From: Polychytrium aggregatum
Taxonomy: Eukaryota; Chytridiomycota; Chytridiomycetes; Polychytriales
Length of the DNA stretch: 64,000 nt
Assembly (NCBI RefSeq): GCF_025602895.1
Contig: NW_026516232.1
Coordinates: 1-64,000 of the forward strand
Reading direction: 5' to 3'
The notes below the pieces were generated by a model that was not told where the DNA came from, ran no database searches, and worked only from the letters and a program-made list of their open reading frames with translations. This document shows, piece by piece, positions 32,742 to 43,587 of this stretch. Position 1 is the stretch's first letter; the number at the start of each line of letters is the position of its first letter. The translations under genes and the position numbers were made by a program.

Positions 32742-33880
32742 ATGATGTGTCCCTGTTGTGACATGCGCTGGATGGGGGTTTGGATTTTCACTCAAAAGCA
32801 TAAGCATCCGCCATCGGCCTGCATCCCAACCGGCCCGCCTCACGATATCCAGAAACTTTTGCGAAGACATCCCATACCTCATCTGATACAACTAGACCTT
32901 CGACCACAATCCGTGCATCTCCTCGGTGATCACACTCTTCAACAGCATGGTGCGGGCCGTTTATGTCTCGATCTGTCGTCAGCTCACATATACCACATGG
33001 ATGCTCTCAAGCTGGCCCATCCCAGCGCACAAGACACTCCTGTGCAGCTTCTGCGTCCGCCTCTTCCACAGCCTGTGGATGATGATGGCGACCCCATGCT
33101 GTCCAGAAGCATGAAGAGTGTCAAGAAGCCACCCAAGCACAGCCGGATGGAGAGGAGCTTCCTTCCCCGCCTCCGTCCCGACGGGACCATCGAGGATCGC
33201 CGACTGCAGCTTCCCTTCCTCTGCGACACCCGCATTATGCGGACCAAGACCGGTAAATTCTACATCGTGGTCTCGGAGCCACTTGTCCGTCCGGGCGAAA
33301 GCCAAGCCCAGGACACGGCCAAGTCGTCTCTATCGATCCTGGCGTCCGTGACTTCATCACCACATACGATCCTTCCGGCCTCGTCACCGCCTGGGGTGCC
33401 TCCAACCCTCACTCGACCAATGGTGGCAGGGACACCAAGAACAGGATGCGTCGAGCAGCCCTCCGCATCCTCGAGCGCATCCGATGCCTTGTCAACGATC
33501 TCCACCGCAAGGCAGCCAAGTGGCTCTGCTCGACGTACAACGTCATCTACATCCCCAAGCTCAACCTCCACCAGCTGGCAGCACACTGCTCTGGACGAGT
33601 GGTCAATGAGAAGATGGCCATGCTGGCCCACTGTCGCTTTGTCGACACCCTCGTCCACAAGTCCAGGGAGTATGCTGACTGCAGGGTGTGTATTGTTGGG
33701 GAGGAGTACACGAGCAAGACATGCACTCGGTGCGGGCACATCAAGCGGGACCTGGGAGCGGCCAAGGTGTACCACTGCAGGGAGTGTGGGTTGATGATAG
33801 ATCGAGACATCAATGGGGCTCGTAACATTCTGTTGAAGAATGCGAGTACGGATGACGTTCTTGGCGAGGGCATGGTGTAG
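32742..33880 (+). pseudogene. Fanzor (eukaryotic TnpB-like RNA-guided nuclease), frameshifted
   Basis: The C-terminal half is a clear TnpB/Fanzor RuvC nuclease. It has RuvC-I VSIDPGVRDF (about 33320-33350), a bridge-helix region, YIPKLN at the RuvC-II position where the usual Glu is replaced by Pro, GEEYTSKTCTRCGH with a CX2C...CX2C zinc ribbon, and RuvC-III DRDINGARNIL, ending at TAG 33878-33880. An upstream block (FLPRLRPDGTIEDRRLQLP, RTKTGKFYIVV) is in a different frame, so a frameshift lies near 33285-33325. The N-terminus before about 33110 is not recognisable. Fanzors are known from chytrids (Spizellomyces SpuFz1). Probably an inactive relic. Confidence 0.85.
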
Positions 33881-36212: not shown

Positions 36213-36870
36213 GCTGGCTCTGGCATTAGGTGTTGGCTTTGCCAACCAGGACATTTTACAATCATCATTGCAGCTCTCTATCCCTTGGGGACCTGTTTGT
36301 GGAGGGACGGCGATGTCAAGTTTTGCCGAACTCATCCATCCAGTGACAGTTTGGAATCTGCAGCTCCGACTTCCATGTCCAGACTTGTGCTGACATATGC
36401 CTGTGGCATTACTTCCTCAGGCTCCTACTGTCGTGCGTGGCGTATCCGAGGGATTGGCGTCTACGACAGACATTCAGTTGCGATGTCATCCAACACCGCC
36501 ACAACATCCAGCCAGATCGCTGGTCTGTTGTTGAGGATTCGTTCGCGTTTGGCTCGCCATTTGCTCAGTTTTTCCTGGTCGATGGTGGCTGGTCTTGCGG
36601 GCACTCGAGCCAGCTTGGGGAGTGCGTCGATTGCAAGGTCGATGTAGGTGATGCCTTCGGGGATCGATGTGGGGTGAACATATTTCTCGAGTCGGTCCTT
36701 GGCTCGGGCACATTCTGCTGCATGTTTTCTGTTGACATACACCTTGGGGCCGTTGGGTCCGGGCTTTCTGCACGCTCCGTCAGGTTTGGGCGGGAAGCCT
36801 CCGACCCTCCAGAGGAACATTCATCGGGCTTGAGCGACTGATATCGCTGGTATCCTTGCGGTCAGTCCCG
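36213..36870 (-). mobile_element. Non-LTR retrotransposon family C, old 3' fragment
   Basis: Similar by eye to the 3' end of the full-length family C copy (about 38025-38690), including the 3' UTR block GGTGTTGGCTTTGCCAACC, but with many substitutions, so it is an older or subfamily copy. It is 5'-truncated about 130 bp upstream of tRNA-Val. No duplication or tail could be defined. Confidence 0.8.
36461..36820 (-). pseudogene. C-terminal remnant of family C ORF2
   Basis: 119 residues still open, MFLWRVGGFPPKPDGACRK..., matching the end of the full-length ORF2 (MLLWRVGCFPPKPDKECKK) including the KVYVNRKHAAEC finger and the IYLDVVAVLDD-like tail. It has no catalytic domain and is a remnant. 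Confidence 0.8.
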
Positions 36871-37001: not shown

Positions 37002-37075
37002 GGTTTCGTGGTGTAGTTGGTTATCACGTGAGTCTAACACACTCAAGGTCTCCGGTTCGATCCCGGACGAAACCA
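37002..37075 (+). tRNA. tRNA-Val (AAC)
   Basis: 74-nt cloverleaf: acceptor GGTTTCG / CGAAACC, D arm with AGTTGGTT, anticodon stem TGAGT / ACTCA around loop CTAACAC (anticodon AAC), T arm TCCGG TTCGATC CCGGA. No intron. No T run follows; tRNA-Ile starts only 7 nt downstream. Confidence 0.96.
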
Positions 37076-37082
37076 TTCTCTC

Positions 37083-37156
37083 GCTCCGCTAGCTCAGTTG
37101 GTTAGAGCGTGGTGCTAATAACGCCAAGGTCACAGGTTCGATCCCTGTGCGGAGCA
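37083..37156 (+). tRNA. tRNA-Ile (AAT)
   Basis: 74-nt cloverleaf: acceptor GCTCCGC / GCGGAGC, anticodon stem TGGTG / CGCCA around CTAATAA (anticodon AAT), T arm ACAGG TTCGATC CCTGT. Followed at once by a T6 terminator. Confidence 0.96.
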
Positions 37157-37953: not shown

Positions 37954-37969
37954 TCCGCATTGGTCCAGT
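37954..37969 (+). repeat. Target-site duplication of family C, distal copy
   Basis: TCCGCATTGGTCCAGT, identical to nucleotides 1-16 of tRNA-Glu at 43437-43452, located exactly at the 3' end of the family C element. It is a target duplication left by insertion. Confidence 0.93.
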
Positions 37970-38220
37970 CAATAGTCAATAGGTGGGTCTTTATTAAAGA
38001 CTTTGCCTTAGCGTCCCTTTTGGGCTCTGGCACTGGGTGTTGGCTTTGCCAACCGGGACATTTGGGTCGTCGGTGTACAGCTCTCTATCCCATGGGGCCT
38101 GTTTGCGGAGGGACGGCGATGTCAAGTTTTGCCGAACTCATCCATTCAGTGACAGTTTGGGACTCCAGCTCCGGCTTCCCTGTCCAAGTGTCTGCTCATG
38201 CGTCTGGGAGGGTTTCTTTC

Positions 38221-41200
38221 TCAGGTACTTGTTTGCTGCGATTGGTCAGCCCGAGGGGCCGCTGTCCACGACAGACATTTGGTTGCGATGTCATCCAGCA
38301 CCGCCACGACATCCAGCCAGATCGCTGGTCTGTTGTTCAGTACTCGGCTGCGCTTGGCACGCCATCTTCTCTGTTTTTCAGGATCGGTGGTGAGTGGTCT
38401 TGTTGGCACTCGAGCCAACTTGGGGAGTGCGTCGATTGCAAGGTCGATGTAGGTGATGCCTTCGGGGATCGATGTGGGGTGAACATATTTCTCGAGTCGG
38501 TCCTTGGCTCGGACACATTCTGCTGCATGTTTTCTGTTGACATACACCTTGGGGCCGTTGGGTCCGGTCTTTTTGCACTCCTTGTCGGGTTTAGGTGGGA
38601 AACACCCGACTCGCCACAGGAGCATTCTCCTTGCTTGGGCAACTGTTGCTACTGGCATCCGCGCTGTCAGGATGGGGTCGCCTTCCCACTTGTAGGTGCC
38701 TGCGATCGACATTACTTTCTCGGGCTTCCGCTCTTTTTCAAAACTGTGAACGATCACCGCCTTCTTGATGGGTGTGCCGGTGCCAGTTCCAGATTCAAAC
38801 AGGTCCAGTCTTGTTCTGTCTGGGGAGTCTCGGTGCTGTCTCTCGAGCTCCTTCCATGCGGCGCTTCCGGTCAGCTTGGAGAGTATCTTCTTGTTTGGGT
38901 TTCTTGGGGGCAACTCGGTGATGTACTTGAGCACGTGGGATCCAAGATATCCTGGGTCGTCTTTCCTGTCGAACCACCGTCCGAAGCACTTGATCATCAG
39001 TATCTGTTTTCTGGTCGCCATGGTGTAGATTCCTGTGGCTGTCATGACAGCCGGACCAGACGCGTTCTGGCGGATGTTGAGTGCCGATCGCAGTGTGTCC
39101 AGCATGCACCCCTGTAGAGTGTTCATTATCGGGCCCTTCATGTTGACGATGGCAAGGCCGTACTCCAGACGGGGCCGGATGAAAGCCTTGTAGATTTTGA
39201 CGATCAGTCCAGGGTAGACTGACTTGCTGAAGATGCCGTGTTCCTTGAGCTCTTTGGTTCGGAACTGGGCTTTGTGCTTTAGTTGAGTGACGTGGGCCTC
39301 TGCGTCGATGCCATCAGGGCCGAACTGCACCCCGAGGTACTTGTAGGTGCTGGTGACGAAGCTAAGAGGTGTTCCCTTGAGTGTGATTGGGGTCGGGTTT
39401 GCTTCCGCGGTAAGCACTTCGCATTTGGTCGGAGAGAAAGCGTAATTGTTTTCATCTGCGTGTGCTTCGGAGATGTCAACAAGTCTTTGGAGGTCTTCTT
39501 GGTTTTTTGCTACCAACGCCATGTCGTCGGCGCACATGACATTGTTGATGATGAGGTTCCCTATTCTGGGTGATGTGACTGCTCGGAGGTTTTGTGCGAG
39601 GTCATCCATGAAGAGGCTGTAGAGGGTGGGTGAAAGAACCGACCCTTGCAGCAGCCCGATCTCCAGCCAGTACGGCCGGGATTTGGTGCCGCTCACGAGA
39701 ACAGCGGTGGTCACGTTGTCGAAGAGCGCGCGTAGGATGCGGATGGTATGCGGGGGGATGTCTCGTTGCTCGAGTTTGTGCCAGAGCCGATCCCGGTCAA
39801 CTGAGTCGTACGCGGCTTTGATGTCCATGAACGCGATCCACGGGGTGTGGCCGTCGTTCTGTAGGAACTTGACGATTGAATCGAGTGCGAATACCTGGTC
39901 CAGGGTTCCCCTGTTGCTGCGGAAGCCTCCTTGGGAGATGTCGATGGGGCCCATCTCCTGGAGGAGTCGGCTATGTAAGATCCTTTCGAATACCTTTCGG
40001 ACAACTTGTAGCAGAGAGATCGGGCGATAGTTCTTGATGTCCTCTTCTTCGCCCTTCTTCTTCCAGATGGGGTGGTTGATGGCGACATTCCATTCTTGAG
40101 GGACGATGCCGGTCCACATGCACCAGTTGAAGAGCTGACGCAGCCAATCCGAGACTTGGTCGGTTACTGGGTGTAGGAGCTCGGCACTGATCCCGTCGGA
40201 CCCAGGGGCCTTGTGTTTCCCCATGCGTCGGATGGCTGTTTTTACTTCTTCTGCTGTGATTTCGCGGCCCAAGAGGCGACTGAATAGTATTTCCTGAGGA
40301 CGCGGTGTATCGTTGGCTTCTTGAACACCGAGACGACTTGAGATGTTCCCAAAGTGGGCCCGGTACTGGTCCATGCTGTCTTGGTCGTTCGGAAGAATCG
40401 ACCGGTTGAAGAAGCCGCTTTTGACCTTGTCTCGCTTGCTGATTTCCTTGAGGAGCTCAGAGTCCGATTTGGTGGAGAGAGACTGGGCCCAGGTGTTGTA
40501 GAAGGCGCGTTTCTGTCGTCGTATGAGGTCCTTGAGTTTGTTGTTCATGTTTTCGTAGTCGGCCATGGCCTGCAGTTGGATTCTCGAGCCTTGTGGCGAC
40601 TGGTTCACGATTCGATAAGCCGTGTTTCGTCGTTTCTTGATGTCAGCCATTTCCGGTGTCCAAAAGCCGTTGCGGGGAGCCGGGCCATCCTTCTTTCGCT
40701 TCCCAATGACGATTTGTGCCACCGCTGTGACGTGGTTCTTGATGATATTCCACCCAGATTCAACGAGGGCTTCGGCGTCTTCGCGTGCCATGGGTCCATC
40801 CTCTTGTGGTAGCCGGGTTCCCAGCTGTGTGATCTGCTCTACGACTACTGGGTGGTGGACTCTAAAGGCTTCCGTGTATTGCTGGAGGGTTTCGGGATCT
40901 TCGAGCTTGTTGGTTCGCCACACGAGGATTGGTGGGCGGGCAGGCTCTCTGGCGGCGTTCCATTCAAGTTCCATCGACACCATGCGGTGGTCTGAGTTAC
41001 AGGTGTCGTTGGAGTGGACCGTCACCGTCTTGGCGTTGTGTCTCAGTGCCGTCGAGACAAAGAAGAGGTCCAGTACTGAGTGTTGTGGTTTCTTCCCGTT
41101 GACGACGTGGGTCCAGTGTTGCCCCGTGGGGTTGGTCGAATCCACGAATTCCAGGAAGCCGCCCGCTACAGCTGTCCGCAGTGGTTGCAAACGGTTGGCG

Positions 41201-41721
41201 GTTTCATGGGTGTCTCTGCTTGTCTGGCCCATGCGGGTGTTGAAGTCGCCCATGATCACAGATGGGATAGGATTGTTCATTTCTGTGGTGTTGGTCTTGA
41301 TGGCCGACAGGGCTTCTCGGAACTTTTGCAGGGCTGCCGCATTGGCTGATAGAGCAGGCTTGAGGTAGAAAGATCCAAAGACGATGCCTCGGAACTTGAA
41401 CCAGATGCTCGTGTGATGAGGTCCAACGCGGAAGTTGCTAAAGTCTTCGAGGTTGGTGGTTTTCGGGTTCCGAATGAGGGCGATTCCTCCGGTGCCTCTT
41501 GCGAGGCCGTCGACAGAGACATATGGCTCTCGGGTTTCGAAAACTATGAGGTTCTTGTAAGGTCCGATGGATTGCTGTGGTTTGAGCCACGTTTCTTGGA
41601 CTGTTATAAAGTCGAGGTCTTTTGCTTTTACCATTTCGATAACCTCGTGTATAGAGGTTTCAAGTCCGCAGACATTCAGGGTCGCGAACCTAATAGTGGG
41701 CGTAGGTTGGGGCTGCATCAT
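38221..41721 (-). CDS. Family C ORF2: AP-like endonuclease and reverse transcriptase
   Basis: 1166 residues starting MMQPQPTPTIRFATLNVCG, with the start in the ATGA overlap with ORF1. The N-terminal APE-type endonuclease has FATLNVCGLE, FITVQETWL, SVIMGDFNTRMG, VLDLFFVS and NSDHRMV. The RT has FMDIKAAYDSVDRDRLW, GLLQGSVLSPTLYSLFMDDL and the active-site block VMCADDMALV (CADD instead of YADD). The C-terminus carries a Cys/His finger (ECKKTG...NRKHAAEC). The endonuclease probably defines the tRNA-Glu target. The ORF is intact. Confidence 0.93.
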   Translation of the reverse strand: MMQPQPTPTIRFATLNVCGLETSIHEVIEMVKAKDLDFITVQETWLKPQQSIGPYKNLIVFETREPYVSVDGLARGTGGIALIRNPKTTNLEDFSNFRVGPHHTSIWFKFRGIVFGSFYLKPALSANAAALQKFREALSAIKTNTTEMNNPIPSVIMGDFNTRMGQTSRDTHETANRLQPLRTAVAGGFLEFVDSTNPTGQHWTHVVNGKKPQHSVLDLFFVSTALRHNAKTVTVHSNDTCNSDHRMVSMELEWNAAREPARPPILVWRTNKLEDPETLQQYTEAFRVHHPVVVEQITQLGTRLPQEDGPMAREDAEALVESGWNIIKNHVTAVAQIVIGKRKKDGPAPRNGFWTPEMADIKKRRNTAYRIVNQSPQGSRIQLQAMADYENMNNKLKDLIRRQKRAFYNTWAQSLSTKSDSELLKEISKRDKVKSGFFNRSILPNDQDSMDQYRAHFGNISSRLGVQEANDTPRPQEILFSRLLGREITAEEVKTAIRRMGKHKAPGSDGISAELLHPVTDQVSDWLRQLFNWCMWTGIVPQEWNVAINHPIWKKKGEEEDIKNYRPISLLQVVRKVFERILHSRLLQEMGPIDISQGGFRSNRGTLDQVFALDSIVKFLQNDGHTPWIAFMDIKAAYDSVDRDRLWHKLEQRDIPPHTIRILRALFDNVTTAVLVSGTKSRPYWLEIGLLQGSVLSPTLYSLFMDDLAQNLRAVTSPRIGNLIINNVMCADDMALVAKNQEDLQRLVDISEAHADENNYAFSPTKCEVLTAEANPTPITLKGTPLSFVTSTYKYLGVQFGPDGIDAEAHVTQLKHKAQFRTKELKEHGIFSKSVYPGLIVKIYKAFIRPRLEYGLAIVNMKGPIMNTLQGCMLDTLRSALNIRQNASGPAVMTATGIYTMATRKQILMIKCFGRWFDRKDDPGYLGSHVLKYITELPPRNPNKKILSKLTGSAAWKELERQHRDSPDRTRLDLFESGTGTGTPIKKAVIVHSFEKERKPEKVMSIAGTYKWEGDPILTARMPVATVAQARRMLLWRVGCFPPKPDKECKKTGPNGPKVYVNRKHAAECVRAKDRLEKYVHPTSIPEGITYIDLAIDALPKLARVPTRPLTTDPEKQRRWRAKRSRVLNNRPAIWLDVVAVLDDIATKCLSWTAAPRADQSQQTST

Positions 41722-43334
41722 TTGCGGGGAGGAGTGGTTCCTTCGCGTCCGCCTTTTTCTTGGCGGCCTGGTTTGTTGCGAGCCAGTTCCTTCGCCTTAG
41801 CAGTGATCTGCTCGGCGACGGCTGGGTCGTTCATCTTCCGTTGGTACAAGGTCGCCGTGAGGAGGTCATTGGATTCCGCACATATCCTGGCAGCGCGTTC
41901 AATGAAGCTCTTGATTTGGAGCTTCTTGGACTCCTTCTCGGCCTCGGTGATCTTCGACACGTCCATGTGTGCGACTTCAGTGAATTTCATGTCCGTAATG
42001 TGCTTCAAGAATTCTTCTCTCGAGCTCTTGTCTCTGAGAACAAACTCACAGACGCTGTTGTTGACAAAGCTGATATTGAGAATCTGGTTGGTGGCAAAGC
42101 CCTTCTCCTTGAAAGCTTGTCTGATCGTGCGGTAGCTACCCCGAGGGATACCCTTGACGTAAACCCAAGCGGCGTTGTCCATCCTATCCTTTAAGGGTCC
42201 TTCCTCGACAGGGACCGAGGATCTGATCATCCTGAATGGCGTGGCAGTCTTGGGCACCAGCCACTTGCCGTCGGTGGGGTCACGGCCGCGGAGGATGGCG
42301 CCGATGGCCTCGTTCTTCTTGCCGGCATCGGCCTCCTGGTGGACTTTTTCGAGGGCCGCCAGCTTGCGCGCGTCGATTGTCTTGTTGTCGGGCTGCTTCT
42401 TGGCACCCCGCTGGGCGGCTGCTGCGTAGGATGTCGGAGCTGGGCGTTCCGAGATGGCCCGGGACGCATGCTCCAGCTCGGAGGCGAGCGTCTGCATGCA
42501 CTCGGTGGCGCTCTGGGTCAGGGCCTTGATTCTAGCAACTTCCTCGGGTTTGCTGAGGTCCAGCTTGGCGAGTTCTTCGTTAATCTTCTGAGCTTTCTTG
42601 AGAAGCTCACTCTGGATGTGCTGAAGCTGCTGTTGGGGACTCTGCTTCTTGCGCATGTCGGTGGCGCAGACGCGCTTCCCGACAGCCCTGGCATCGGCGA
42701 GGGAGGCCCGTTGTTCGAAAAGCTTCCATCCGGCTTCGTCATGGCGGGTCATCAGGCCCCAGAATACGAGGATGGAAAAATGCTTCCCGCATTCTTCCAC
42801 CTTGGTGGCGGCGTCCGGGCTCATCAGCATGTTCTTGCAGACGACCGAGTGCTGGGCGTCGTCGATACGCCAGGCGGGGGGCTTGCTCCCTCTGCAACGG
42901 GAGCATTGAACTTGGTCTGCCTTCAGAGCGAAGACAAACCTAAAGCGGCGGTAGGTGATGTCTTTGAAATCGACCGGGATGAAGTCCTGGTCGGTGAGAG
43001 TGTTGTTCTTGGCCTTCTCGAGGATCGAGAGGGCCCACTTCTTTTCTTCAACCACGTCGGGCGGGTTGGGAAAGATTGCCGAATCTGCATAGAGCTCTTC
43101 GATAATTTCTTCGACGGTCTTCTTGCGACCGACGTGCAGCTGGATGGGCTCACCATCCCTGCGGTGCTTTTTGGTGGGTGCTGATTCGGTGGCCTCGGTG
43201 ATACTGGCGCTACTGACCTGATGGCCGTTGCTTTCTAGGCTGCGATTTTCGTCCGGTTGGCCTGGTTCTTGGGCAGCAGGGCTGCCCGAGGTGTCTATGG
43301 CCATCTCGTTGATGGCCGTTTGGGTCGGGGGCAT
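41718..43334 (-). CDS. Family C ORF1: zinc-ribbon and RRM-like nucleic-acid-binding protein
   Basis: 538 residues starting MPPTQTAINEMAID. It has a disordered N-terminus, a Cys cluster CSRCRG...VVCKNM...ECGKHFSILVFWGLMTRH, a helical Lys/Glu region, and the block WVYVKGIPRGSYRTIRQAF...ICEFVLRD-like that resembles an RRM. The Cys cluster followed by an aromatic/His motif and the RRM-like block occur in the same order in family B ORF1, so the two proteins are probably homologous. The stop codon TGA overlaps the ORF2 ATG by 4 bases (ATGA). Confidence 0.85.
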   Translation of the reverse strand: MPPTQTAINEMAIDTSGSPAAQEPGQPDENRSLESNGHQVSSASITEATESAPTKKHRRDGEPIQLHVGRKKTVEEIIEELYADSAIFPNPPDVVEEKKWALSILEKAKNNTLTDQDFIPVDFKDITYRRFRFVFALKADQVQCSRCRGSKPPAWRIDDAQHSVVCKNMLMSPDAATKVEECGKHFSILVFWGLMTRHDEAGWKLFEQRASLADARAVGKRVCATDMRKKQSPQQQLQHIQSELLKKAQKINEELAKLDLSKPEEVARIKALTQSATECMQTLASELEHASRAISERPAPTSYAAAAQRGAKKQPDNKTIDARKLAALEKVHQEADAGKKNEAIGAILRGRDPTDGKWLVPKTATPFRMIRSSVPVEEGPLKDRMDNAAWVYVKGIPRGSYRTIRQAFKEKGFATNQILNISFVNNSVCEFVLRDKSSREEFLKHITDMKFTEVAHMDVSKITEAEKESKKLQIKSFIERAARICAESNDLLTATLYQRKMNDPAVAEQITAKAKELARNKPGRQEKGGREGTTPPRK

Positions 43335-43436
43335 GTGGAGGGGGTCGTTGGTTGAGAGTGTTGAGCGGTTTGTAAATAAAAGAGCGACGGAGAGCCTGTG
43401 CCTGTGGATCCAAAAGTTGAGATCAAGGTCAAGCTC

Positions 43437-43452
43437 TCCGCATTGGTCCAGT
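43437..43452 (+). repeat. Target-site duplication of family C, tRNA copy
   Basis: TCCGCATTGGTCCAGT, the 5' end of tRNA-Glu; partner of 37954-37969. Confidence 0.93.
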
Positions 43453-43508
43453 GGCTAGGATTTCTCGCTCTCACCGAGACGGCCGGGGTTCGATTCCCCG
43501 ATGCGGAA
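43437..43508 (+). tRNA. tRNA-Glu (CTC)
   Basis: 72-nt cloverleaf: acceptor TCCGCAT / ATGCGGA, anticodon stem TCTCG / CGAGA around CTCTCAC (anticodon CTC), T arm GGGG TTCGATT CCCC. Its first 16 bases are the proximal copy of the family C target duplication, so the gene survived the insertion, but everything upstream of position 1 is now retrotransposon. Confidence 0.96.
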
Positions 43509-43512
43509 TATC

Positions 43513-43584
43513 GGTTCCATAGTGTAGCGGTTAGCACTCAGGATTCTGACTCCTGCAACCCGAGTTCAAATCTCGGTGGGACCT
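43513..43584 (+). tRNA. tRNA-Gln (CTG)
   Basis: 72-nt cloverleaf: acceptor GGTTCCA / TGGGACC (one G-T pair), anticodon stem CAGGA / TCCTG around TTCTGAC (anticodon CTG), T arm CCGAG TTCAAAT CTCGG. It starts 4 nt after tRNA-Glu. Confidence 0.96.
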
Positions 43585-43587
43585 CTA

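What the first reader, a model, noticed from the sequence alone, without database searches (positions are those of the whole stretch)
37954..43508. Site-specific LINE inserted into a tRNA-Glu gene with a 16-bp duplication that rebuilds the tRNA
The family C element is flanked by TCCGCATTGGTCCAGT on both sides. That is exactly nucleotides 1-16 of tRNA-Glu(CTC), so the first-strand nick would be in the A box (after TCCAGT) and the second nick exactly at the mature tRNA 5' end. The gene stays complete and only its upstream flank changes, a potentially harmless target. I know of LINEs that insert near tRNA genes (Dictyostelium TRE), but precise insertion within a tRNA with regeneration looks distinctive.
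Basis: partly seen in the sequence, partly recalled or inferred. Interest (0 to 1): 0.9.

Follow-up and report, generated by a model that had tools for sequence, protein, structure and literature searches.

The report
Retrotransposon that targets and rebuilds tRNA genes
A chytrid-fungus genome carries a jumping gene that lands at one exact position inside several kinds of tRNA gene and copies the tRNA's first 16 bases as it does so, so the tRNA gene looks whole again and can be hit repeatedly.

Summary
The window lies in a 64.7-Mb genome, almost certainly Polychytrium aggregatum (Chytridiomycota). The element (37970-43436, minus strand) is an intact two-ORF LINE with an APE-type endonuclease and an RT. 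It sits between two copies of tRNA-Glu nt 1-16, the right one heading a complete tRNA gene. Of 15 near-identical copies with both junctions, 14 have an exact 16-bp duplication of tRNA nt 1-16; the 15th, at a contig edge, lacks one base. They fall at 11 distinct loci in tRNA-Glu(CTC), tRNA-Gly(GCC) and tRNA-Ala(CGC); two more 5' ends abut tRNA-His(GTG). Uninterrupted empty sites exist for the window copy and two others. The targets share the pol III A box TRGYNNAGTGG, cut between AGT and GG; no copy was found in neighbouring tRNAs with AGTTGG or AGCGG. That motif occurs 2725 times in the genome, so it cannot suffice alone: targeting probably also uses pol III factors (inferred). The element RNA's 3' end (...GACU/G) can pair with the cut end. 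5'-truncated and stacked insertions also occur. Some diverged relatives are not in tRNA genes. My literature searches listed no LINE inside tRNA genes. New variant of a known kind.

The parts
37954..37969 (+). Left copy of the 16-bp target-site duplication: orphan head (nt 1-16) of tRNA-Glu(CTC), at the element's 3' side
37970..43436 (-). Full-length tRNA-targeting LINE, 5467 bp
   Evidence: 99.56-99.78% identical to the copies in C32, C346 and C375
37970..37982 (-). 3' tail: AGTCAAT repeat (CAATAGTCAATAG on +), the RNA 3' end that can pair with the AGT primer
   Evidence: other copies have tail CAATAG or CAGTCAATAG
38221..41721 (-). ORF2, 1166 aa: APE-type endonuclease, reverse transcriptase, C-terminal Cys/His motif
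   Evidence: 12 full-length near-identical copies without a stop in the genome
41032..41685 (-). APE-like endonuclease domain (PF03372, PF14529)
   Evidence: motifs LNVCG, QETW, GDFN, SDH present
39322..40062 (-). Reverse transcriptase domain (PF00078)
   Evidence: CADD active site, GSVLSP
41718..43334 (-). ORF1, 538 aa, no Pfam or NCBIfam domain; its stop TGA (41718-41720) overlaps the ORF2 ATG (41719-41721)
43423..43436 (-). Conserved 5' terminus, TCAAGGTCAAGCTC on the + strand, abutting tRNA nt 1
43437..43508 (+). Regenerated intact tRNA-Glu(CTC) gene; first 16 nt = right copy of the duplication; A box 43444-43454; target cut between 43452 and 43453
43513..43585 (+). tRNA-Gln(CTG), next gene of the cluster, A box ...AGCGG, no insertion
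37002..37156 (+). tRNA-Val(AAC) and tRNA-Ile(AAT), upstream genes of the same cluster, A box ...AGTTGG, no insertion
36216..36865 (-). Relic of a related LINE (82.6% identity to element positions 70-717), 136 bp from tRNA-Val; no tRNA head seen at its edges

Best explanation
A recently active APE-type LINE that inserts by target-primed reverse transcription at one position inside tRNA genes. SHOWN: insertion between T16 and the GG of the A box (TRGYNNAGT^GG), in minus orientation relative to the tRNA, with a 16-bp duplication equal to tRNA nt 1-16; use of Glu, Gly, Ala and (5' junction only) His tRNA genes; intact tRNA gene left at the element's 5' side and an orphan 16-nt head at its 3' side; empty sites; 5'-truncated and stacked insertions. 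INFERRED: the RNP is brought to tRNA genes by pol III factors or by contacts beyond the A box; its endonuclease nicks after AGT; the RNA 3' end (...GACU or ...GACUG) anneals to the AGT/CAGT 3'OH and cDNA starts there; the second strand is cut 16 nt upstream, at the mature tRNA 5' end. Because the duplicated 16 nt carry everything of the tRNA upstream of the cut, the gene body and internal promoter are restored, only the 5' flank is replaced, and the site can be hit again. Anatomy about 0.97; AGT annealing about 0.7; pol III tethering about 0.6.
For: Junctions of near-identical copies: of 17 3' ends (full query length), 16 have an exact tRNA head and one, at a contig edge, a head lacking one base; 18 of 18 5' ends abut tRNA nt 1 (in C411 the element lacks its last two bases). 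15 complete copies, 11 distinct loci by flanks. tRNAs called after the 18 5' ends: Glu 4, Gly 10 (one with two extra bases), Ala 2, His 2. Empty sites: window vs C29 and C228 99.5% over 2000 columns; C32 vs C235 99.8% over 2016; C346 vs C49 99.6% over 2398. Two 88-bp 5'-truncated inserts stacked in C367, each followed by the 16-mer. Copy of C257/C39 inserted in a tRNA-Gly whose upstream flank is another family's 5' end with the same terminus. Alignment of five target tRNAs: invariant T8, G10, A14, G15, T16, G17, G18. No copy found in tRNAs with AGTTGG, AGCGG or AGTCGG of the same clusters. 3' tails CAATAG, CAGTCAATAG, CAATAGTCAATAG fit slippage or non-overlap at an AGT/CAGT primer. A box alone: 2725 matches, reversed control 2863. 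12 full-length ORF2 copies without a stop (three of them, C40, C114 and C18, are one locus by flanks).
Against: No biochemistry, no transcript data. Diverged relatives (74-83%) are not all in tRNA genes: C378 has a 16-17-bp duplication ending AATAGT at a non-tRNA site; C162/C364, C386/C87, C385/C364:1004653 and C212 have no recognisable tRNA head at the 3' end. Family D (61% aa) ends in an A-run at a non-tRNA flank. tRNA-Asp, Ser, Val(CAC), Gly(TCC), one Gln and one Met also carry AGTGG yet no near-identical copy was found there, so preference is narrower than the motif, or numbers are small. Tethering is an argument from counts only. tRNA-His: only the 5' junction was seen; the C375 copy is rearranged and the C62 copy runs to a contig end. 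Searches of repeats are lower bounds.
Confidence: 0.87

Rival explanations
1. Pure DNA-sequence recognition: the endonuclease reads the A-box sequence itself, with no host factor.
For: Five targets share TRGYNNAGTGG and no invariant base in nt 1-7; the cut is at a fixed place in that motif; the diverged C378 relative used a site ending AATAGT outside any tRNA.
Against: 2725 exact matches to TRGYNNAGTGG in the genome, about as many as the reversed control (2863), yet 11 of 11 distinct loci are tRNA genes. Longer sequence (T loop/B box) recognition cannot be excluded.
Confidence: 0.25
2. No specificity at insertion: LINEs land widely and only copies in tRNA genes survive selection.
For: tRNA insertions leave the gene whole and would be tolerated (inference from the anatomy).
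Against: The four full copies compared are 99.5-99.8% identical (ORF1 is broken in one of the four, C375), ORF2 is open in 12 copies and three have empty counterparts, so they are young; same position in 15 of 15 copies; intergenic sites would be tolerated too.
Confidence: 0.02
3. One founder insertion spread with tRNA clusters by segmental duplication or gene conversion.
For: Some copies do share long flanks (C114=C18=C40=C37; C257=C39); C32 and C375:475254 share 117 bp upstream at 95.7% and both lie in Val-Ile-Glu-Gln clusters; five loci share 60-80 bp downstream, where a tRNA-Gln follows; tRNA clusters are duplicated in this genome.
Against: After collapsing copies with long shared flanks, 11 loci remain, in three tRNA isotypes and with three kinds of 3' tail; C32 and C375:475254 differ in tail; three loci have empty versions with the same flanks; 5'-truncated copies have the same duplication.
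Confidence: 0.03
4. The 16-nt head is not a target duplication but comes from the template: element RNA (or cDNA) joined to a tRNA or pre-tRNA by template switching.
For: Head equals the first 16 nt of a tRNA; such chimeras are known for other LINEs (recalled).
Against: Empty sites show the whole tRNA was already there and that both native flanks are kept around the insertion.
Confidence: 0.02

Closest known systems
Dictyostelid TRE5/TRE3 and NLTR-A/NLTR-B LINEs
   Same: TRE elements have an APE endonuclease and two ORFs; they target tRNA genes in a compact genome; TRE5-A needs the B box and its ORF1 binds TBP of TFIIIB in vitro (PMC5391098, passages seen; PMC5006619, first part and passages seen).
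   Different: They insert outside the gene, about 50 bp upstream (TRE5, NLTR-B), 2-6 bp upstream (NLTR-A) or about 100 bp downstream (TRE3) (PMC5006619). Here the cut is inside the A box at one base and the tRNA is rebuilt by the duplication. Whether NLTR-A makes such a duplication I could not see.
Dada DNA transposons (tRNA-targeting groups)
   Same: Insert at fixed positions inside tRNA genes, some in the A box (nt 8-13) (PMC3706591, PMC8869645, passages seen).
   Different: DDE transposase, 6-7-bp duplication; in the Perkinsus families described each keeps to its own tRNA. That a 6-7-bp duplication leaves the tRNA split is my inference. Here a LINE, 16-bp duplication, several isotypes, gene rebuilt.
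Dewa (zebrafish site-specific LINE)
   Same: Sequence-specific LINE associated with tRNA-Leu units.
   Different: Lies in the spacer of tRNA-Leu, not in the gene (one sentence in PMC3706591; the original Kojima and Fujiwara 2004 paper was not seen).
R1Bm, SART1Bm and other rDNA- or telomere-specific APE LINEs
   Same: A short RNA-target pairing is proposed at the start of reverse transcription (SART1Bm AGG; R1Bm mentioned there; PMC7265360, passages seen). APE endonuclease and two ORFs: recalled.
   Different: Targets are telomeric repeats (SART1Bm, PMC7265360) or 28S rDNA (R1, PMC3706591); R1 interrupting its gene is recalled. RNase H and clade membership were not compared by a tree here.

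Membership tests
APE-type LINE (non-LTR retrotransposon) | Apurinic-like endonuclease N-terminal to a reverse transcriptase in one ORF | tested here: met
   PF03372/PF14529 and PF00078 above Pfam cut-offs; weak, sub-cut-off exodeoxyribonuclease III match; motifs present
APE-type LINE (non-LTR retrotransposon) | No LTRs, target-site duplications, 5' truncation of some copies | tested here: met
   duplications; 88-bp truncated copies in C367; no terminal repeat other than the 16-mer seen by reading the junctions
Restriction-like-endonuclease LINE (R2, Utopia, CRE) | C-terminal restriction-like endonuclease and no APE domain | tested here: not met
   an APE domain is present; no RLE model was searched on its own
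Dictyostelid TRE | Integration tens of bp outside tRNA genes | tested here: not met
   15 of 15 complete copies inside the gene at nt 16/17
Dictyostelid TRE | Dependence on TFIIIC/TFIIIB, ORF1-TBP contact | not testable with these tools
   needs bench work
Dada | DDE transposase and 6-7-bp duplication | tested here: not met
   RT/EN proteins, 16-bp duplication
R1/L1/Tad/Tx1 clade assignment | Position in an RT tree, RNase H presence | not tested
   No RNase H family among Pfam matches at E up to 0.01; no reference tree built; 15 of the 25 hits were aligned, at 20-29% identity

The most novel reading that the evidence does not exclude
A LINE lineage whose target is the tRNA gene class as a whole: it couples pol III machinery for finding tRNA genes with an RNA 3' end complementary to the A-box core (AGT), and its 16-nt stagger is matched to the distance from the cut to the mature tRNA 5' end, so each insertion regenerates a functional tRNA and a fresh target. 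This gives a self-renewing, nearly harmless landing site where several families stack upstream of the same tRNA genes and supply their 5' flank.
Probability: 0.55. Interest if true: 0.85.

Novelty: new variant of a known kind. Interest (0 to 1): 0.78.

Why it matters
The tRNA-associated LINEs that I could read about insert outside the gene, and tRNA-inserting DNA transposons interrupt it; this one enters the gene at a single base and leaves it whole. It suggests a third route to harmless integration at a target that genomes share, and offers a new APE-type target-specific enzyme for the study of target-primed reverse transcription and perhaps gene delivery to tRNA loci. It also implies that tRNA 5' flanks in this fungus are being replaced by LINE 5' ends, which makes the tolerance of tRNA transcription to flank replacement directly testable.

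Tried and rejected
Considered and rejected: survivorship without specificity, spread by duplication, template switching (see rivals). A-box sequence as sole determinant was tested by counting and judged unlikely.

The 5' 14-mer TCAAGGTCAAGCTC gave 32 places: 17 ends of the family, 2 ends of the family stacked before it in C257 and C39, and 13 others, all fetched, in whose printed 105 downstream bases I saw no tRNA. A tRNA-Gly pair 6.3 kb apart in C28 looked like another insertion, but both copies continue as tRNA-Gly with the same flank. A GCTTCTTGGTCTAGT search for a second copy of the C88/C101 head found only those two. RNA folding of the 3' end gave no strong signal (z -1.13). Rfam at gathering scores found only the four tRNAs between 36500 and 44500, no ribozyme. 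A repeat search on short pieces was uninformative. Paper search was swamped by generic terms; a choanoflagellate survey (PMC6875170, passages) had nothing to the point.
Full report
OBSERVATION. The right one opens a complete tRNA-Glu(CTC) gene at 43437-43508, found by ARAGORN and by Rfam at 59.9 bits against a cut-off of 29. Between them lies a minus-strand element of 5467 bp. The 16-mer occurs 41 times in the 64,678,306-base genome and its reversed control never. Of the 41, 9 are cut-off heads running straight into element 3' sequence and 32 head a tRNA-Glu gene.

ORGANISM. One hit of the ORF2 search, an annotated Polychytrium aggregatum protein, lies on a contig of 508424 bases, the length of contig C235 here, and the only ORF1 relative found is also a P. 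aggregatum protein (7999 best candidates scored). I therefore take it to be Polychytrium aggregatum, a chytrid (lineage).

ANATOMY. ORF1 (41718-43334, 538 aa) has no Pfam or NCBIfam match. Its stop TGA overlaps the ATG of ORF2 (38221-41721, 1166 aa), as read from the sequence. ORF2 has an APE-type endonuclease and an RT. Against solved structures the RT matches R2 and L1 proteins and the endonuclease, weakly (E 0.0007), the LTX chain 2v0r. Of 8 relatives inspected, 6 carry the endonuclease N and E motifs, 7 GDxN, 6 SDH, 7 the ADD of the RT, and 6 the C-terminal Cys/His motif; the others have gaps or changes there. A six-frame search found 12 full-length near-identical ORF2 copies without a stop, and one at 76% (41 matches, 39 of 526 candidates scored, so a lower bound). 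The four full copies compared are 99.5-99.8% identical over the element; ORF1 is open in three and broken in the C375:475254 copy.

ALL COPIES. The 3' end of the element found 48 matches (40 of 77 candidates scored): 17 at 99-100% over essentially the whole query, 2 at 98% over 171 bases, the rest at 74-83% or short pieces. The 5' end found 22, 18 of them at 98-100% over the query. Of the 17 3' ends, 16 are preceded by exact nt 1-16 of a tRNA gene and one, at the start of contig C37, by a tRNA-Gly head lacking one base. Both 98% short ones also have a tRNA-Glu head. Of the 18 5' ends, 18 are followed at once by nt 1 of a tRNA gene that ARAGORN calls: Glu(CTC) 4, Gly(GCC) 10 (one with two extra bases), Ala(CGC) 2, His(GTG) 2; in C411 the element's last two bases are missing. 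Fifteen copies have both ends in hand; 14 of 15 have an exact 16-bp duplication, the exception being C37. By long shared flanks they fall into 11 distinct loci: C114, C18, C40 and C37 are one, C257 and C39 another. C32 and C375:475254 share 117 bp upstream at 95.7% and five loci share 60-80 bp downstream, where a tRNA-Gln follows; I count these as distinct because the remaining flanks and, for C32 and C375, the tails differ.

EMPTY SITES. Joining the window's two flanks gives a sequence 99.5% identical over 2000 columns (7 mismatches, one gap) to C29 and to C228, where the tRNA-Glu gene runs on uninterrupted; C20 matches at 98.1% over 1970. C32 has its empty site in C235 (99.8% over 2016) and C346 in C49 (99.6% over 2398; both keep an older short insertion). 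So the target, the cut and the duplication are read directly rather than inferred. Whether these are alleles or duplicated loci was not settled.

TARGET RULE. The five tRNA starts compared share T8, G10, A14, G15, T16 and the following GG, the A box TRGYNNAGTGG, and no invariant base in nt 1-7 (the fifth, tRNA-Val(CAC), comes from a diverged 3' fragment in C101). In the tRNA genes of the loci held (redundant), Val(AAC), Ile, Thr and Leu have AGTTGG, Gln AGCGG in all but one and Met AGTCGG in all but one. No insertion was found in those, although Val, Ile and Gln sit next to targeted Glu genes. Asp, Ser, Val(CAC) and Gly(TCC) have AGTGG but carry no near-identical copy among those found. The A box has 2725 exact matches genome-wide, about the number of its reversed control, 2863, so 11 of 11 loci in tRNA genes needs more than the A box. 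I infer a pol III factor or contacts further inside the gene. TRE5-A of Dictyostelium gives the precedent: it needs the B box and its ORF1 binds TBP of TFIIIB in vitro (PMC5391098, passages).

PRIMING. The 3' tail next to the tRNA head is CAATAG, CAGTCAATAG or CAATAGTCAATAG on the tRNA strand. All fit an RNA ending ...CUAUUGACU or ...GACUG whose last 3-4 bases pair with AGT or CAGT at the nicked end, with occasional non-overlap or slippage. RNA-target pairing at this step has been proposed for SART1Bm (PMC7265360, passages). A read-through RNA carrying the complement of the tRNA head could pair over 16 nt; nothing here tests that.

REPEATED USE. In C367 two 88-bp 5'-truncated copies stand one behind the other, each followed by the 16-mer, ahead of an intact tRNA-Glu; C356 matches the version without them at 99.7% over 8874. 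One of the two could also be a tandem duplication. In C257 and C39 the element entered a tRNA-Gly whose left flank is already the 5' end of another family, 38% identical over 84 residues of ORF1 and ending in the same TCAAGGTCAAGCTC. A short copy with a 191-bp 3' end (96%) lies before tRNA-Glu in C49 and C346, with other sequence between it and the gene.

RESULTS AGAINST A SIMPLE STORY. Diverged relatives are mixed. C13 (83%) has a tRNA-Glu head and C356/C367 (80-81%) a mutated one. The C101 fragment abuts tRNA-Val(CAC), but its left head (shared by C88) differs at 2 of 16 bases from the tRNA-Pro start in the same cluster and at 5 of 16 from tRNA-Val. C378 has a duplication of 16-17 bp ending AATAGT that is not in a tRNA; C366, C219 and C238 share its left flank. 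C162/C364 (the C364 3' end lies about 0.2 kb from tRNA-Val(CAC)), C386/C87, C385/C364:1004653 and C212 show no tRNA head. The window's own relic at 36216-36865 lies 136 bp from tRNA-Val with no head. Other groups (C371, C241, C372, C235:468554, C124, C81, C23) match only from query position 52 onward and their junctions were not read. Family D, 61% identical in ORF2, ends in an A-run in a non-tRNA flank shared by C223 and C235. So strict tRNA targeting is a property of family C and some near kin, with the stagger and the AGT end perhaps older.

WHAT IS KNOWN. A 2013 paper states that TRE5-A and Tf1 insert close to, not at specific positions inside, their targets, and introduces Dada DNA transposons inside tRNA genes with 6-7-bp duplications (PMC3706591, passages). 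A 2022 paper puts a site used by many Dada families at nt 8-13, in the A box; its introduction also lists tRNA genes among targets of non-LTR retrotransposons, without saying in the passage whether inside the gene (PMC8869645, passages). Dictyostelid LINEs insert about 50 bp or 2-6 bp upstream or about 100 bp downstream (PMC5006619, first of eight parts and passages). In the titles and abstract starts listed by searches (8 of 8 papers; 4 of 4; 25 of 54; 4 of 4; 20 of 168; 3 of 3; 11 of 11) I saw no LINE inside tRNA genes, and no paper held both Polychytrium and retrotransposon. The library holds open-licence papers only, so this is not proof of absence in print or in Repbase.

VERDICT. A real, recently active, tRNA-gene-specific LINE with exact insertion in the A box and regeneration of the tRNA; new variant of a known kind.

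Noticed in passing
G000 C223:459805-463242, C411:112066-115503, C235:244575-248012: A sister LINE family (61% identity in ORF2) without stops in ORF2; 3' ends read in C223 and C235 end CATCTGATG plus an A-run in a shared non-tRNA flank; a natural comparison for the switch from A-run tail to AGT-pairing tail.
   Followed up: partly
L063 (C378:1439-4850): A 76%-identical, 5'-truncated relative with a 16-17-bp duplication ending AATAGT at a non-tRNA site, about 0.6 kb from a tRNA-Leu/tRNA-Met pair.
   Followed up: partly
L046 and L048, left of the insertion (C257, C39): 5' end of another LINE family (38% identity over 84 residues of ORF1, L046) with the same terminal TCAAGGTCAAGCTC lies against tRNA-Gly: two families stacked at one tRNA.
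   Followed up: partly
contigs C70, C222, C312, C339, position 3-18: Four contigs begin two bases before nt 1 of tRNA-Gly, as if assembly broke at LINE-tRNA junctions.
   Followed up: no
P0007, P. aggregatum protein: An annotated 'male sterility' protein starts with a stretch like the LINE ORF2 C-terminus (79% identity over 10% of the query): likely a LINE relic drawn into a gene model.
   Followed up: no
window 33257-33880: ORF with a Cas12f1-like TNB domain (PF07282) and a weak, sub-cut-off OrfB_IS605 match: TnpB/Fanzor-like gene or relic.
   Followed up: no
L010, L030, L031 near tRNA-Glu: Short copies joining the element's 3' end to an internal piece (query about 1669-1794), next to tRNA-Glu genes and with a tRNA-Glu head, mutated in L030 and L031: internally deleted, perhaps non-autonomous forms.
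   Followed up: partly
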